This document shows, piece after piece, positions 4,783-15,649 of a stretch of DNA of 43,979 nucleotides; positions within the stretch are counted from its first letter, which is position 1; each line of letters begins with the position of its first letter. The position numbers were made by a program, and so were the translations under genes. The stretch is from a virus: positions 1 through 43,979 of the IMG/VR virus record IMGVR_UViG_3300042328_000860; one strand, written 5' to 3'. The notes beneath the pieces are model-generated. The model was not told where the DNA came from. It worked only from the letters and a program-made list of their open reading frames with translations, and did not search any database.

Positions 4783-5142
4783 ATGGAAAAAGAACTTTTA
4801 TCAAACGTCCTTCAAATATCAGGACAGCTTAAAGTATTACACTGGCAAACTACTTCATATGCAGAACATAATGCGTTTGAAAGAATTTATGATTCTCTTG
4901 GTGATTTGTTTGATAAACTAATTGAAGTTTATAGCGGTAAATATGAAAGACCTAAATTTGGTGGTGTTAAAGATCTTTCTTTTGCTGATTATGATAGCAT
5001 TAAAGTAGATGCTTTCATTACTGCTGCTGAAGAATTTTTTGTAGATGCTTTTATGGCAGAACAAGATTCTGAACTTGCTAACATTAAAGACGAAATTGTT
5101 GCTGAGTTACAACAACTTAAGTATTTACTTACTTTAAAATAA
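4783..5142 (+). CDS. Ferritin/Dps-like four-helix protein (DUF5856-like)
   Basis: 119 residues. The segment LKVLHWQTTSYAEHNAF (17-33), followed by YDSLGDLFDKLIEVYSGKY, resembles helix 1-2 of Dps/ferritin-like proteins. In those, a conserved LHWxT segment and later acidic residues lie near a metal site. A further acidic helix (FITAAEEFFVDAF) follows. I recall a similar phage family named DUF5856. It lacks the CTS-like N-terminus of its neighbours but sits within their operon, seven bases after the previous stop. Whether it binds iron or DNA cannot be told from the sequence. Confidence 0.6.
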   Translation: MEKELLSNVLQISGQLKVLHWQTTSYAEHNAFERIYDSLGDLFDKLIEVYSGKYERPKFGGVKDLSFADYDSIKVDAFITAAEEFFVDAFMAEQDSELANIKDEIVAELQQLKYLLTLK

Positions 5143-5152
5143 TATTACCGCA

Positions 5153-5809
5153 ATGAAACACATACAAACATTCGAAAACTATATAATTAGTCTTAATGAA
5201 GCTGACACTTTTAAAGAAGGTGATTTTGTTAAGTGGATAACACCACAAACTGGAACACAAATTTCTTTTGGTATAGTTACAAAAGTGTACAGCAACTCTT
5301 TTGACGCAAAGACGATAGCTACCGGAGGAAAAGGAGATGAGCAGCCAAACAGAGGCTTGTCTATTGGCTTGGGTGGACCAGTTCTTTGGAACCCTCGAAT
5401 AACCGCTAAGAAACTTAAACAAGATATTGAAGATCTTGGCGGATCTACAAACATGGCGGATAAGATTAAATTTGACAAGGCATCAATTTGGAATATTAAT
5501 GAAAGCCAAGTAAATGAATCTAATGCAACACTTGGTACTAAAGCAAAACAATTTGCTAACGCTGTTAAAGGATTAGTTGACACTTTCATCGAAGCTGAAA
5601 AGAAAGAAGAAGACAAATTACCAGATGAATATACAGCAGCGCTTAAAACATTAGGTATTAACAAGCAAGACGCTGCTATATGTTTTTTTGACTCAGTAGG
5701 TGATGCTGATGACGTACTTGACGCTGCAAAGAAAGCTGGTATCAAATACGCAGAAGTTAATGATAGTGAAACCGGTTCTGGAGCAATTGTATTTTCAACA
5801 AAACAATAA
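5153..5809 (+). CDS. Candidate head-packaged protein with CTS-like N-terminus
   Basis: 218 residues. It opens with MKHIQTFENYIISLNEA, sharing MKHIQ-F with the next gene and offering a T4 gp21-type cleavage site LNE|A. Residues 20-80 hold a segment (EGDFVKWITPQTGTQISFG) resembling a small beta-barrel of the kind often named hypervirulence-associated or TUDOR-like; this is weak. A charged linker follows (about 115-150) and then a C-terminal alpha/beta region ending SGAIVFSTKQ. Start chosen at the ATG preceded by CA, the same context as the following two genes. No enzymatic motif seen. Confidence 0.55.
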   Translation: MKHIQTFENYIISLNEADTFKEGDFVKWITPQTGTQISFGIVTKVYSNSFDAKTIATGGKGDEQPNRGLSIGLGGPVLWNPRITAKKLKQDIEDLGGSTNMADKIKFDKASIWNINESQVNESNATLGTKAKQFANAVKGLVDTFIEAEKKEEDKLPDEYTAALKTLGINKQDAAICFFDSVGDADDVLDAAKKAGIKYAEVNDSETGSGAIVFSTKQ

Positions 5810-5813
5810 TATT

Positions 5814-6377
5814 ATGAAACACATACAACTTTTTGAACACTTTGCTGAAAACATCGTTGAAGGTGTAAACTTTAATGGTTCTAAAGATGCTGATCTTGAA
5901 GATGTAGGCGCAGCTATCTCTAAAGAGAGAGACGCCGATGAAGCAGAATTAGTAAAAATAGGTAAAGAAGCTCTTAAAGCAGCAAAGCCAGTTTCTTTAA
6001 CGGGCAAAATTAAAGAAGATGCTCCAAAGTTAATTAAGTATCTTGTAGATGCTTTTAAAAGAGCAGACATTGAACTTGATGATAAGAATGTATACATCAC
6101 AAGTTCTCCAGGCATTGGTTGGGATAATGTAATAGAAATCCCAGTTGCAAAACAGGAAGGCTTTTATTTTTCAACTGTTCTTGATTACTATGATCTTGCT
6201 GAAAGTGGAAACGGAAAAATAATTATACCTGGCGCCTTTATAGAAGAAGCTAGCGGACAACTTGATTATGCAGTAGATGATATCAATAATAATGGTCAAA
6301 TCGTTAAAGTGGCTACGGGGTTTAAGAAATACCTTGAAACTTTAAATAGTGAAAAAAATGATCTCAGATCAAAATAA
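5814..6377 (+). CDS. Candidate head-packaged protein with CTS-like N-terminus
   Basis: The ATG at 5814 is chosen over upstream in-frame ATGs (5700 onward). It gives MKHIQLFEHFAENIVEG, matching the start of the previous gene, and places the gene five bases after that gene's stop. IVE|G is a good gp21-type cleavage site. The 187-residue product has an acidic helical middle and an alpha/beta C-terminal part (VYITSSPGIGWDNVIEIPV). No family recognised. Packaging is inferred from the leader. Confidence 0.55.
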   Translation: MKHIQLFEHFAENIVEGVNFNGSKDADLEDVGAAISKERDADEAELVKIGKEALKAAKPVSLTGKIKEDAPKLIKYLVDAFKRADIELDDKNVYITSSPGIGWDNVIEIPVAKQEGFYFSTVLDYYDLAESGNGKIIIPGAFIEEASGQLDYAVDDINNNGQIVKVATGFKKYLETLNSEKNDLRSK

Positions 6378-10940: not shown

Positions 10941-12203
10941 ATGGCTAAAACACTTTCTTTTACAGATCTTGACTCCGCTTTAACTAAAGTAAATGACAAA
11001 GGATCTATCATTACTATTAATACTTTTTCAAAGATTGATGAGTGGATAGGTACGGGTAACTATTTACTTAATGCACAATTAAGTGGAAGTTTATTCGGAG
11101 GTTATCCAAACTCTAGATCAATCTGCGTCGCAGGCGAATCGGGTACTGGCAAGACTTTCTTAACCCTAAACGCTTGCCGTGAGGCACAAAAAATGGGTTA
11201 TAACATCATTTACATGGACTCTGAGGCTGCGGTAGATGAGGATATCATTAAAAACTTTGGTGTTAATCCTGAAGCATTCCGTTACCAACCAGTAAGTACG
11301 CCTCAAGAAGTAAGACACTTTGTTGCTAATCTTTGTGATACATTAAAGAAAGCAAAAGACAAAGGAACTGAACTTCCAAAAATCATGCTTGTACTTGACT
11401 CATTAGGAAACCTTGCTACCAACAAGGAAAGAACCGATGCTATGAGTGGCAGTGAGAAAAAGGACATGACAAAGCAACAAGAACTACGTTCTTTATTCCG
11501 TGTAATTACAACGGATCTTGCTGAAATGAAAATTCCTTTTATTTTTACCAATCACACATATGCTTCTATCGGTTCATTTATTCCGGGGCAAACAATTTCT
11601 GGAGGAGGTGGAGCAATCTATAATGCGTCAGTAATCTTACAACTTTCTAAAGCTGGTCTTAAAGAAGGTGGCGATGAAGCCGCAGCCGCTGGTGTTCAAA
11701 AGACAGGTATCGTTGTAACATCAAAACCCGCTAAGAATCGTTTTGCTCGCCCAATTCCCGTTAAGTTCCATATCAGTTTCTATAAAGGTATGAATCCATA
11801 TGTTGGATTAGAAACCTTTATTAATTGGGAAAACTGTGGTATTCAACGTGGTAAGATTCTTGACCAAAAAGTATTTGATAAGTACGTTGTTGGTAAACCT
11901 GCTGAGGCAATCATTGCGCCAACTCGTTGGGAACACATAATGGAAGATGGCACAGTAAAGGTATTCTATCTTGAACCAAAAGAAACTGCAAGAACAATTG
12001 TAGTACGTCATCTTGGATGCGAAGTAAAACCAAATGAATTGTTTACATCCAAAGTAATTACTGAAGATGTTCTTCGAGAACTTGATGAAAAAATCATTAA
12101 GAAAATGTTCATGCTTCCAAATATTGCTGACCTTAGCGAACTTGAGGATATGGAAATTGCTGATGATGTATTAGATACTGAAATTGACAACAATGAGGAT
12201 TAA
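10941..12203 (+). CDS. uvsX: UvsX RecA-like recombinase
   Basis: Strand-exchange ATPase for recombination-dependent replication. 420 residues: Walker A GESGTGKT at 65-72, Walker B KIMLVLDSLGNL, and an IFTNHTYASIGSF segment followed by a Gly-rich SGGGGAIYNAS loop, matching the RecA L2/core region. The acidic C-terminal tail (about 395-420) resembles those of RecA and T4 UvsX (391 residues). The TAA stop overlaps the next gene's ATG region by 11 bases. No intein is present here, unlike some metagenomic uvsX genes. Confidence 0.95.
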   Translation: MAKTLSFTDLDSALTKVNDKGSIITINTFSKIDEWIGTGNYLLNAQLSGSLFGGYPNSRSICVAGESGTGKTFLTLNACREAQKMGYNIIYMDSEAAVDEDIIKNFGVNPEAFRYQPVSTPQEVRHFVANLCDTLKKAKDKGTELPKIMLVLDSLGNLATNKERTDAMSGSEKKDMTKQQELRSLFRVITTDLAEMKIPFIFTNHTYASIGSFIPGQTISGGGGAIYNASVILQLSKAGLKEGGDEAAAAGVQKTGIVVTSKPAKNRFARPIPVKFHISFYKGMNPYVGLETFINWENCGIQRGKILDQKVFDKYVVGKPAEAIIAPTRWEHIMEDGTVKVFYLEPKETARTIVVRHLGCEVKPNELFTSKVITEDVLRELDEKIIKKMFMLPNIADLSELEDMEIADDVLDTEIDNNED

Positions 12204-12670: not shown

Positions 12671-13393
12671 ATCGTAGCTACACACTTAGAAAAGATATTT
12701 TTTCACTATCTCCTTGAGAGACGGGAACTACTTGGGATTGTAAAATCCAGGTTTTTTGAAACAGCGGACATCCGCAAAATCTATGAAGTAATTCAAGAGT
12801 TCGCAGAAAAGTACAACGAAACTCCATCTAAATCTCAAATCAATGAGTTGATTAAGATGAAGGGTTTATCCGAGGATCTTGATACTACCAAGATTGATTA
12901 CTTATACGAGGTTAACCTTAAAGAATACGAAGAAGATTGGTTAAGAGAAACGGCAGAATCTTGGATTGAATATAAGAATCTTGACTTATCAGTTTTTGAT
13001 CTTTTAAACTATTTAAAAACTACTAAGGTTACAACTGAAAACGTTAAAGATGTTGTTCAGAATGCAAAGAATATCATAACCGAAAGAAATAACATACAAT
13101 TTAACTTTGATGAAGGTCTTGACTTCTTTAATCCTGAATCTCACTTACAACCAGCAACTGATACTTTTAGTTCAGGTATTCCTATGGTGGATCTCGTTCT
13201 TGGTGGAGGCTGGTATTCAAAAGCTCTATTTTGTTTCATAGGTGAAATGAAAATTGGTAAATGTTCTTCTTATGAAACAGACATTACCGTTCGAAATAAG
13301 AAAACTGGCTTAATTGAAACCATACAAGTTGGCGACTTTCATAAACGATTCATAAATGGAATTGGCACTTTTGATTCCCATGAAGTTGTATAA
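12671..13393 (+). CDS. 41: Replicative helicase gp41, N-terminal half fused to split intein N-fragment
   Basis: DnaB-family helicase N-part. The stop is firm; the start is not. The first standard start in frame is TTG 12848, yet the frame stays open from 12653, and its product (ATHLEKIFFHYLLERRELLG, then RFFETADIRKIYEVI) looks like a DnaB/gp41 N-terminal helical domain. Coding therefore probably begins near ATC 12671 or by an unusual codon. The extein ends inside Walker A at GEMKIGK. Residues from Cys (13262) to the stop are the 43-residue intein N-fragment. After splicing to the C-part at 14537 the full P-loop GEMKIGKS is restored. The mature helicase would be about 433 residues if the upstream start is right (T4 gp41: 475). 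Confidence 0.85.
   Translation: MVATHLEKIFFHYLLERRELLGIVKSRFFETADIRKIYEVIQEFAEKYNETPSKSQINELIKMKGLSEDLDTTKIDYLYEVNLKEYEEDWLRETAESWIEYKNLDLSVFDLLNYLKTTKVTTENVKDVVQNAKNIITERNNIQFNFDEGLDFFNPESHLQPATDTFSSGIPMVDLVLGGGWYSKALFCFIGEMKIGKCSSYETDITVRNKKTGLIETIQVGDFHKRFINGIGTFDSHEVV
13262..13390 (+). other. Split intein N-fragment (43 aa)
   Basis: Starts with the nucleophile Cys1 (CSSYETDITVRNKKTG), typical of intein block A, followed by IETIQVGDF. It ends at residue 43, before any block B. Classical split inteins have N-fragments of about 90-110 residues; a short N-part is the mark of the atypical (AceL-TerL-like) class. Joined to the gp41 N-extein. Confidence 0.88.
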
Positions 13394-13410
13394 ATTTTCA
13401 TTTCTCCAAT

Positions 13411-13420
13411 GAATATATAC
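13411..13420 (+). promoter_or_regulatory. Putative late promoter (GAATATATAC)
   Basis: 15 bases before the homing endonuclease ATG, inside the gap between the two helicase halves. It gives the endonuclease possible expression separate from gp41. Confidence 0.45.
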
Positions 13421-13434
13421 AATAAACAAAACCT

Positions 13435-14526
13435 ATGGCTAGATTTAACCCAAGATCAGTAGAACAACAAATGGAAAGACACAACATTTCCAGAGAAGAA
13501 GCGGAAGTTAAAGTAGCAAAAGTTATTGCAAACAAAGCAGCAAGTAATCCATATTCTGTTGAAGTGCAGATGAAAAGATATAGCCTTACACGTGAAGAAG
13601 CTGAAATTAAAGTTACTGAACTAAAGCAAAAAACTGCAACTGGCCATCTTATAGCAGATCCACAATGGCAAATGAAAAGATTTGGACTTTCACAAGAAGA
13701 AGCTGAATTAAAGGTAAAAGATGCATATACTCGACGAGGAAGATCCACTTCTCGCAAGAAAAATGAAAACCCTGCATCTCATTTTAATACAATTGAATAT
13801 TGGAAAAGTAAAGGGCTATCTAATGAAGAGGCAAAGATTAAAAAGACTGAGCATATACAAAAAATGCAATTAGCATTTCAGGAAGAAATGCATACTAACC
13901 CTTCTCAATATATTGGCAGAACGCCTCTTGAATTAGAATATTGGTTAAATAAAGGTTATTCAGTTGAAGAAGCTACACTCTTACGTAAAGAAAGACAAAG
14001 AACATTTACATTAGAAAAATGCATTGCTAAATATGGTGAAGAAATAGGTTTTGATATGTGGAGAACTCGCAATATAAAGTGGAGCTCTAAAATGGAAAGA
14101 ATGTACAAAAACGGTGAGTTTACAAGATTTTGTAAACATAATTATTCAAATAGTGAACTCAATTTTGTTAATGATCTTCTTAGCCATTATAAGCCAAGCA
14201 CTACATTCTATTGTGCACTCCCAGGCAATAAACAATTCTTTAGACATTTTAAAGATGAAGGTATAACACTCGCGTATGATTTTGTGTGCGGGAAAAAAAT
14301 CATAGAATTTAACGGGGATTACTGGCATTGTAATCCTTTTATTTATGAGCCTACATATTTTCATAAGTTTATGAAATGCTCAGCGCAGGAAAAGTGGGAC
14401 ATTGATAAAAAGAAAATAGAATTAGCAGAATCTTATGGTTATGAAGTTCTTGTTATTTGGGAATCTGAATACCAAAAAAATAAGGAACTAACTATCAACA
14501 AATGTATAGAATATTTAACAAACTAA
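13435..14526 (+). CDS. Vsr-like free-standing homing endonuclease with tandem DNA-binding repeats
   Basis: 363 residues between the two gp41/intein halves. The C-terminal nuclease domain has E241, D282 in AYDFV, and EFNGDYWH (291-298), followed by a DKKKIELAESYGYEVLVIWE-type helix-strand. This is the very-short-patch-repair (Vsr)/EDxHD fold, reported for homing endonucleases at fractured genes with split inteins (Dassa et al. 2009). The N-terminal part has five repeats marked by (S/T)xEEAx at about 19, 52, 86, 129 and 176, each preceded by a helix (QMKRxxL or EYWxxKG). These are probably DNA-recognition modules. It likely cleaves intein-less gp41 alleles to spread the intein-HEG cassette. Confidence 0.88.
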   Translation: MARFNPRSVEQQMERHNISREEAEVKVAKVIANKAASNPYSVEVQMKRYSLTREEAEIKVTELKQKTATGHLIADPQWQMKRFGLSQEEAELKVKDAYTRRGRSTSRKKNENPASHFNTIEYWKSKGLSNEEAKIKKTEHIQKMQLAFQEEMHTNPSQYIGRTPLELEYWLNKGYSVEEATLLRKERQRTFTLEKCIAKYGEEIGFDMWRTRNIKWSSKMERMYKNGEFTRFCKHNYSNSELNFVNDLLSHYKPSTTFYCALPGNKQFFRHFKDEGITLAYDFVCGKKIIEFNGDYWHCNPFIYEPTYFHKFMKCSAQEKWDIDKKKIELAESYGYEVLVIWESEYQKNKELTINKCIEYLTN

Positions 14527-14536
14527 AAATAATTTA

Positions 14537-14938
14537 ATGAAGTTTAATCAAAAACTTGAAGCAGAAAGACCATTTAAAAAGTTTATTGAAACTTTTACGT
14601 TTGGCGATAGTAATGAAGAATACGAGGTTCTTACAGATACGGGTTGGGCTGATATTAAAGCAATAGGAAAAACAGTTGAATACGAAGTTTGGTCTCTTAA
14701 AACTCTAAATCATTCATTAAGAGCGGCAGATACACATATTGTATTTAAAAAGAATTTAAGTGGTTGGTTTGAAGAAGTATTTCTTAATGAATTAGCTATT
14801 GGAGACACTATACTAACTGAATCTGGTGAAGAGCTGGTTTTATCAATTGTAAATACATTTAAAATAGAAAATATGTATGATTTACAACTAATGAATGATA
14901 ATCGTAGATATTATACAAACGGTATTCTTAGCCATAAT
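14537..14938 (+). other. Split intein C-fragment (134 aa)
   Basis: Contains the parts missing from the N-fragment: YEVLTDTGWADI, a block-B-like ADTHIVF (64-70), block F-like ENMYDLQL, and the terminal block G HN followed by Ser+1. Together the halves make a 177-residue mini-intein. The split falls between blocks A and B, as in the atypical AceL-TerL class. Confidence 0.88.
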
Positions 14939-15649
14939 TCAATCTGGTTAGCAAATGTAGCTGCTAATAGTGTTAAACTTGGATATAATACAGCGGTGCT
15001 TTCTCTTGAGATGAGAGACAGAAAACTTATTAAACGTCTTGGTGCAAACTTGTTAGGAATTAACATGAAAGAATACAACAAGATGGCTGAAGATAAGGTA
15101 TTGATGAAGCAAAAGATTGGAAACATGGGTTATGAAAGTTTACAAGTTCCTGGTAAATTATACGTAAAGGAATTTCCAACTTCATCTGCAGGTGTTCCTG
15201 ACATTGAGAGATACTTATTAAAGATGGAAGAACTTAAAGGTATTAAGTTTAAGGTAATTGTACTTGACTATATTAATATCTTAAAGAACTGGAGAAACCC
15301 AAACTCTGAAAATACATACATGAAGATTAAACAAATTGCTGAAGATGCTCGTGCTATGGCAATGAGAAATAACTGGGCAATCGTGACAGCAACTCAGATT
15401 AATCGTTCAGGTTTTGGTAGCACCGACTTATCCGCAACTAACATTTCGGAATCAGCTGCATTAGGACATACCGTAGATGCTATGTTTGGTATTATACAAG
15501 ATGAAATGATGCACGCAAACCGCGAATACATACTCAAACTAATTGCTAACCGTGATGATGGTTACAAAAATGCAAGACAGAAATTTTTAATTAACTATGA
15601 TCTTATGCGAATAACGCAAGACATGGATTCCCAAATGATAACTGAATAA
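14537..15649 (+). CDS. 41: Split intein C-fragment fused to gp41 helicase C-terminal half
   Basis: 370 residues. The first 134 are the intein C-fragment, ending YYTNGILSHN. The helicase resumes at S135, which is both the +1 nucleophile and the P-loop serine. The C-extein has Walker B VIVLDYINIL, TATQINRSGF (DnaB motif H3-like) and the arginine-containing IANRDDGY region. It cannot bind ATP until trans-spliced to the N-part at 12671-13393. The start ATG lies ten bases after the endonuclease stop, so it may be translated with that gene. Confidence 0.93.
   Translation: MKFNQKLEAERPFKKFIETFTFGDSNEEYEVLTDTGWADIKAIGKTVEYEVWSLKTLNHSLRAADTHIVFKKNLSGWFEEVFLNELAIGDTILTESGEELVLSIVNTFKIENMYDLQLMNDNRRYYTNGILSHNSIWLANVAANSVKLGYNTAVLSLEMRDRKLIKRLGANLLGINMKEYNKMAEDKVLMKQKIGNMGYESLQVPGKLYVKEFPTSSAGVPDIERYLLKMEELKGIKFKVIVLDYINILKNWRNPNSENTYMKIKQIAEDARAMAMRNNWAIVTATQINRSGFGSTDLSATNISESAALGHTVDAMFGIIQDEMMHANREYILKLIANRDDGYKNARQKFLINYDLMRITQDMDSQMITE

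What the first reader, a model, noticed from the sequence alone, without database searches (positions are those of the whole stretch)
12671..15649. Atypically split intein in the P-loop of gp41 helicase with a nested Vsr-type endonuclease gene
Sequence shows helicase N-part ending GEMKIGK then Cys1 of a 43-residue intein piece and a stop. Next comes an independent endonuclease gene, then a 134-residue intein C-piece ending HN, followed by Ser+1 and the rest of the helicase. The insertion falls between Lys and Ser of Walker A, the least tolerant place. Established knowledge: fractured genes with split inteins and Vsr-like endonucleases were reported from metagenomes (Dassa et al. 2009), and short-N split inteins are exemplified by AceL-TerL. 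The complete locus in one phage genome, in gp41, with Cys1/Ser+1 is unusual. The replicative helicase depends on trans-splicing.
Basis: partly seen in the sequence, partly recalled or inferred. Interest (0 to 1): 0.92.

Follow-up and report, generated by a model that had tools for sequence, protein, structure and literature searches.

The report
Split-intein phage helicase with homing nuclease
In this uncultured phage the replication helicase gene is cut in two at its ATP-binding loop by a mobile element made of a split intein with a homing-endonuclease gene between its halves, so the two protein halves must be stitched together after translation; it is a well-formed new example of a known kind of element, not a new kind.

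Summary
A T4 gp41-like helicase is split between Lys and Ser of Walker A (GEMKIGK|S) by a 1,677-bp insert: a 43-residue N-intein, a stop, a 363-aa endonuclease ORF, and a 134-residue C-intein ending SHN. Sister phages (up to 94% identical in the C-extein) have the same helicase uninterrupted. Of 92 distinct helicase loci compared, 67 are empty and 25 carry an insert at exactly this junction, always split, never contiguous. The helicase tree needs about 7 gains or losses. One near-identical pair of contigs (L108/L109) differs by precise presence or absence of the whole module. The nuclease is Vsr-like EDxHD type (best fold match I-Bth0305I). The break lies after the first intein helix, as in AceL-TerL and GOS-TerL. 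In four relatives the nuclease is gone or wrecked but the gene is still split. The same C-intein family sits in Walker A of terminase, clamp-loader and SbcC-like genes of other phages. This is a new member of Dassa-type 'fractured genes' with an atypical split. Trans-splicing is very likely but untested.

The parts
12671..13261 (+). N-extein: N-terminal 197 residues of gp41-like helicase, up to GEMKIGK of Walker A; putative ATC start codon at 12671-12673
   Evidence: PHROG_19 positions 179-366
13262..13390 (+). N-intein (IntN), 43 aa, Cys1, ends after first helix plus a 13-residue tail; stop 13391-13393
   Evidence: relatives have 32-38 aa
13435..14526 (+). free-standing Vsr-like/EDxHD homing endonuclease gene, 363 aa
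   Evidence: Foldseek top: 3r3p I-Bth0305I, then 1vsr
13456..14004 (+). region of the endonuclease holding five repeats of a helix-turn-helix-like unit with an S/T-x-EEA core, probably DNA-binding
14146..14523 (+). nuclease domain: D282, IEFNGDYWH298, D324, W342 invariant or nearly so in 44 relatives
14537..14938 (+). C-intein (IntC), 134 aa, ADTHI block B, block F Asp, ILSHN block G
14939..15649 (+). C-extein: Ser+1 of Walker A and the rest of the gp41-like helicase (236 aa) with stop
   Evidence: best fold match T4 gp41 8dtp

Best explanation
This is a mobile 'fractured gene' element. A mini-intein inserted between Lys and Ser of the Walker A loop of a gp41-type replicative helicase has been broken after its first helix, and a free-standing EDxHD/Vsr-like homing endonuclease gene lies in the break. 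Shown here: the anatomy, empty sites in close relatives, gain/loss of the whole module, and conservation of the splicing residues. Inferred: (1) the N-precursor (helicase 1-197 + IntN) and C-precursor (IntC + helicase 198-433) are made separately; IntN docks on IntC to complete the HINT fold; Cys1 attacks, the acyl group passes to Ser+1, the terminal Asn cyclises, and the spliced helicase with an intact GKS loop is released. (2) Until then neither half can bind ATP properly. (3) The endonuclease cuts intein-free helicase genes of co-infecting phages around the GK|S codons, and repair copies the whole IntN-nuclease-IntC module in. (4) Once split, the gene stays split even after the nuclease decays, because only precise removal restores the helicase.
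For: Extein continuity at profile positions 366/367. Empty-site sisters L003-L009. 25 insert-bearing and 67 empty loci, every insert exactly at GK|S/T. Intein blocks invariant in 18 relatives: A64-D65-x-H67, D115, I130-L131-S132-H133-N134. A contiguous homologue in the TerL Walker A of Salmonella phage P46FS4, IntC 38% identical (E 4e-22), shows the unbroken form and places the break after helix 1. Joined intein matches solved VidaL (E 1.7e-4). Nuclease fold: I-Bth0305I first, Vsr second. Label changes 7 times on the helicase tree. L108/L109 differ only by the 1,881-bp module at this site within 3.6 kb of identical flank. dN/dS well below 1 for IntN (0.12-0.13) and IntC (0.22-0.23) between the window's virus (L082) and L084/L183, though synonymous sites are near saturation. 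Splits without a nuclease: L183, L204, L162, and a wreck in L171.
Against: No splicing data. Pfam intein and NCBIfam intein_Cterm matches are below their cut-offs, so intein identity rests on the family comparison. The window's helicase start codon is ATC, which may mean weak initiation or a damaged gene. The contig is probably incomplete, so an intact second helicase is not excluded. The nuclease's target was not determined.
Confidence: 0.92

Rival explanations
1. The two helicase halves are not spliced but assemble non-covalently into a working enzyme, as reported for split nrdA of phage Aeh1 and proposed for T4 topoisomerase.
For: Precedent for nuclease-split phage enzymes that work without splicing (PMC2988022).
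Against: Those cases as described carry no intein. Here the break lies between Lys and Ser of Walker A, and the splicing residues are conserved across diverged relatives, including relatives that have lost the nuclease.
Confidence: 0.03
2. The locus is a dead or dying copy and the phage uses another helicase (a second gp41 outside this contig, or the host's).
For: ATC in place of the ATG start; contig is only 44 kb.
Against: Strong constraint on the N-extein against sister L003 (dN/dS about 0.02 for codons 60-197; 37 synonymous against 18 replacement changes in codons 1-59). The same ATC occurs in a second contig of the virus. All three ORFs are open and complete.
Confidence: 0.04
3. Assembly chimera or RNA intron mistaken for a split intein.
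For: None beyond the unusual layout.
Against: Same arrangement in a second contig and in many diverged phages; no Rfam match anywhere in the window; pieces end in proper stops and the junction motifs are those of inteins.
Confidence: 0.01

Closest known systems
Fractured genes with split inteins and Vsr-like/EDxHD endonucleases (Dassa et al. 2009, NAR 37:2560; content from memory, paper not held)
   Same: host gene broken into two ORFs by IntN and IntC with a free-standing Vsr-like endonuclease ORF between; T4-like replication gene as host
   Different: here the split is after intein helix 1 (short IntN); the well-known gp41 examples such as gp41-1 and gp41-8 have the usual long IntN (about 90-100 aa), as I recall
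AceL-TerL and GOS-TerL atypically split inteins (PMC11766414, PMC13014065)
   Same: short IntN with the break after helix 1; GOS-TerL IntN is 37 aa
   Different: host gene is terminase; GOS-TerL uses Ser1/Cys+1; here Cys1/Ser+1 in gp41 with a 43-aa IntN
VidaL intein (PDB 6vgv/6vgw)
   Same: atypically split, short IntN, nearest solved relative by sequence (E 1.7e-4); from memory, a T4-like helicase intein (VidaL T4Lh-1) exists, so the host gene may be the same
   Different: break after strand 2 (16-aa IntN, PMC13014065); only distantly related in sequence
Contiguous TerL mini-intein of Ackermannviridae (Salmonella phage P46FS4, QIG62080.1)
   Same: homologous splicing domain inserted between Lys and Thr of Walker A
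   Different: unbroken, no nuclease, in terminase
I-Bth0305I, founding EDxHD homing endonuclease (PDB 3r3p)
   Same: best fold match of the nuclease domain (prob 1.00, TM 0.69 on the target)
   Different: 19% identity over the alignment, E 0.057; this one has five N-terminal helix-turn-helix-like repeats

Membership tests
Class 1 intein | nucleophile at position 1 (Cys/Ser), Ser/Thr/Cys at +1, C-terminal His-Asn | tested here: met
   Cys1 at 13262, SHN|S ending at 14938; SHN invariant in 18 relatives
Class 1 intein | block B and F residues | tested here: met
   A-D-x-H67 and D115 invariant in 18 relatives. Block B Thr is Ala, as also in VidaL. The block F His of most relatives is Arg in this sequence
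Class 1 intein | splicing activity | not testable with these tools
   needs co-expression
Naturally split intein, atypical (short IntN) | IntN of roughly 15-40 aa on a separate ORF, IntC with the rest of the HINT fold | tested here: met
   IntN 43 aa (core 30), IntC 134 aa; break site located by contiguous homologue
Fractured gene (Dassa type) | free-standing endonuclease ORF between the halves | tested here: met
   13435-14526
Fractured gene (Dassa type) | module absent from homologous alleles (mobility) | tested here: met
EDxHD / Vsr-like homing endonuclease | Vsr-like fold | tested here: met
   Foldseek 3r3p and 1vsr first and second, prob 1.00 and 0.99, though E 0.06-0.09; NCBIfam vsr E 0.004, below cut-off
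EDxHD / Vsr-like homing endonuclease | E-D-x-H-D catalytic residues | tested here: inconclusive
   D282, H298 invariant and D324 nearly so in 44 relatives; the first Glu (E241 here) is Glu in only 18 of 44 rows of this alignment
EDxHD / Vsr-like homing endonuclease | cuts the intein-free allele | not testable with these tools
   needs biochemistry
gp41-type replicative helicase | DnaB/RecA-like C-terminal ATPase with Walker A restored on splicing | tested here: met
   PHROG_19 E 3e-38; T4 gp41 structures are the best PDB match by sequence and fold

The most novel reading that the evidence does not exclude
One lineage of P-loop-seeking intein modules has spread over the Walker A codons of several unrelated phage ATPases (gp41 helicase, terminase, clamp loader, SbcC-like, and at a shifted position UvsX), jumping between non-homologous genes because the nuclease reads codons for G-K-S/T. 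Once split, the gene stays split after the nuclease is lost, so protein stitching becomes an obligatory step, possibly a timing switch, in phage replication and packaging.
Probability: 0.25. Interest if true: 0.65.

Novelty: new member of a known kind. Interest (0 to 1): 0.5.

Why it matters
Short-IntN split inteins are useful for peptide labelling and few are characterised; this family offers many Cys1/Ser+1 pairs with 32-43-residue N-pieces. The near-identical plus/minus pair L108/L109 and the nuclease-less splits give a direct view of the life cycle of these elements: invasion, nuclease loss, persistence of the split. A replicative helicase that cannot hold ATP until two polypeptides are joined also makes it testable whether trans-splicing limits or times phage replication.

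Tried and rejected
(1) A duplication at the break: the tail of IntN (KRFINGIGTFDSHE) resembles the head of IntC (KKFIETFTFGDSNE); shuffling gives p 0.04 for the longer stretch and 0.27 for the tail alone, and L084/L183 lack the tail, so I treat it as chance. (2) RNA intron: no Rfam match, no tRNA. (3) Recent co-conversion of the window from a known sister: identity to L003/L006 (L166/L169) is flat around the site, so there is no sign of a recent transfer relative to these sisters. (4) Other fractured genes within the window: no second C-intein hit was seen in it; the neighbouring ORFs that match a family are ordinary replication and structural genes. (5) Reading Dassa et al. 2009 directly: not held. 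(6) Careful bootstrap tree: not finished; the quick SH-aLRT tree was used, with several long branches (L107, L162).

Full report
What is there. From 12671 an open frame encodes 197 residues of a T4 gp41-like helicase ending GEMKIGK, the first part of Walker A. It continues without break into a 43-residue peptide beginning with Cys and stops at 13393. After 41 bases comes a 363-residue ORF (13435-14526), and 10 bases later an ORF (14537-15649) whose first 134 residues end ILSHN and whose remainder starts SIWLAN and is the rest of the helicase. PHROG_19 (DnaB-like helicase) is matched to position 366 by the first ORF and from 367 by the last. T4 gp41 is the best solved relative by sequence and by fold.

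Is it an insert. Yes. Close relatives L003-L009 (83-94% identical in the C-extein) carry the same helicase uninterrupted, with GK followed directly by S. Over 92 distinct helicase loci, 67 are empty and 25 carry an insert; in all 25 it lies at the same codon boundary. Two of the 25 are the window and its near-copy L082. The sample was drawn by similarity to this protein, so the ratio is not a frequency. On a helicase tree the label changes 7 times, at least 6 forced by well-supported branches (quick search, long branches noted). Two contigs, L108 and L109, are identical for the 358 bases available upstream and for 3,628 bases downstream of the site, except that L109 has the complete 1,881-base module; all 20 downstream differences lie beyond 3.6 kb. 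If differences were evenly spread this clustering would have a probability near 2 in 100,000 (my arithmetic), though the boundary was chosen after looking. This fits transfer of the module with its flanks; direction is not known.

What the pieces are. C-intein: 18 relatives aligned share A-D-x-H (block B), the block F Asp and I-L-S-H-N before the +1 Ser/Thr. The standard intein models match only below cut-off, so the identification leans on relatives. The clearest is the terminase of Salmonella phage P46FS4, which holds a contiguous intein ...ARQSGK|CVKGD...GFLSHN|T at the same place in Walker A, 38% identical to the window's C-intein, E 4e-22. Aligning to it puts the natural break of the window's intein after the first helix (..GDFHKRF), before the strand ..YEVLTDTGW. 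That is the split position reported for AceL-TerL and GOS-TerL, while VidaL is broken earlier, after strand 2 (PMC13014065). The joined window intein matches VidaL in the PDB at E 1.7e-4. The N-piece is 32-38 residues in relatives and 43 here; GOS-TerL has 37 (PMC11766414).

Endonuclease. The C-terminal domain has invariant D282, I290, E291, N293, G294, H298, W342 and nearly invariant D324. The AlphaFold2 model (mean pLDDT 88) has the catalytic domain of I-Bth0305I as its first Foldseek match and E. coli Vsr as second. I-Bth0305I is the type enzyme of the EDxHD homing family, which reads very long targets (PMC3943268). The first Glu of that motif is not well conserved in my alignment, so that feature is inconclusive. 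The N-terminal half has five repeats of a helix-turn-helix-like unit with a core ..S/T-x-EEA...

How it most likely works. Shown: anatomy, site, mobility pattern, conservation. Inferred: the two precursors associate, IntN completes the HINT fold of IntC, splicing joins Lys to Ser and rebuilds Walker A, and the nuclease spreads the module into empty alleles. dN/dS between the window's virus (L082) and L084/L183 is 0.12-0.13 for IntN and 0.22-0.23 for IntC, which suggests the splicing parts are kept functional; synonymous sites are close to saturation, so only 'well below 1' should be read from this. Particularly telling are four loci where the nuclease is absent (L183, L204, L162) or wrecked (L171), yet both intein halves remain and the gene is still split. 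The split outlives the nuclease.

Wider family. The same C-intein family, with matching N-pieces where visible, is found after Lys of Walker A in terminase, clamp-loader-like, and SbcC-like genes, and at a shifted P-loop position in UvsX-like genes of other contigs (host genes named from the extein sequence by eye). 309 named phage records carry a C-intein homologue; the annotated ones among the 30 listed are mostly terminase. P-loops are a known favourite of inteins, with the Lys/Thr junction called 'classic' (PMC5050341), so this is a strong example of a known trend.

Comparison and novelty. It meets the tested features of a fractured gene in the sense of Dassa et al. 2009 (from memory; paper not held) and of an atypically split intein. 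I file it as a new member of a known kind. What is less ordinary is the number of relatives at one codon, the natural plus/minus pair, and the nuclease-less splits.

Open points. The helicase start codon is ATC where the sisters checked have ATG, in both contigs of this virus. The first 59 codons are nonetheless conserved against L003 with 37 synonymous and 18 replacement changes, so they are probably translated. The contig is probably a fragment, so absence of another gp41 cannot be shown.

Noticed in passing
window 12671-12673: Helicase N-ORF has ATC where the sisters have ATG; the upstream spacer is about 170 bp against about 45 bp in sisters L003/L006. Same in contig L002.
   Followed up: partly
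L246 (MF360958.1 427988-431194) and L244 (252416-260772): Cultured Salicola phage SCTP-2: terminase N-half ending LARQLGK|C... with a 43-aa IntN lies on the minus strand near 429.5 kb, and the C-half starting with IntC on the plus strand at 256.4 kb, about 173 kb apart. A dispersed split gene in an isolate.
   Followed up: partly
L108 and L109 around 2239: Near-identical phage contigs that differ by precise presence or absence of the whole gp41 split-intein module; both also carry a second nuclease plus C-intein in another P-loop gene (5001-6274).
   Followed up: yes
L171 4493-5375: Wreck of the endonuclease: helix-turn-helix repeats and the last residues remain in broken frames, nuclease core deleted, while IntN and IntC are intact.
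   Followed up: partly
window 13456-14004: Five repeats in the endonuclease N-half; the family consensus instead starts with a CxxC zinc-finger-like motif, suggesting swapped DNA-binding modules.
   Followed up: partly
L170 1542 and 8177: A relative with an empty gp41 site carries inteins in UvsX (at the P-loop, GISSHN|TGKT) and in an SbcC-like gene (NIVSHN|STLS) instead; the window's UvsX (10941-12203) is intein-free.
   Followed up: no
L162 4794-5369: A Clostridia MAG contig carries a nuclease-less split of the same helicase, probably a phage contig binned with the host.
   Followed up: no
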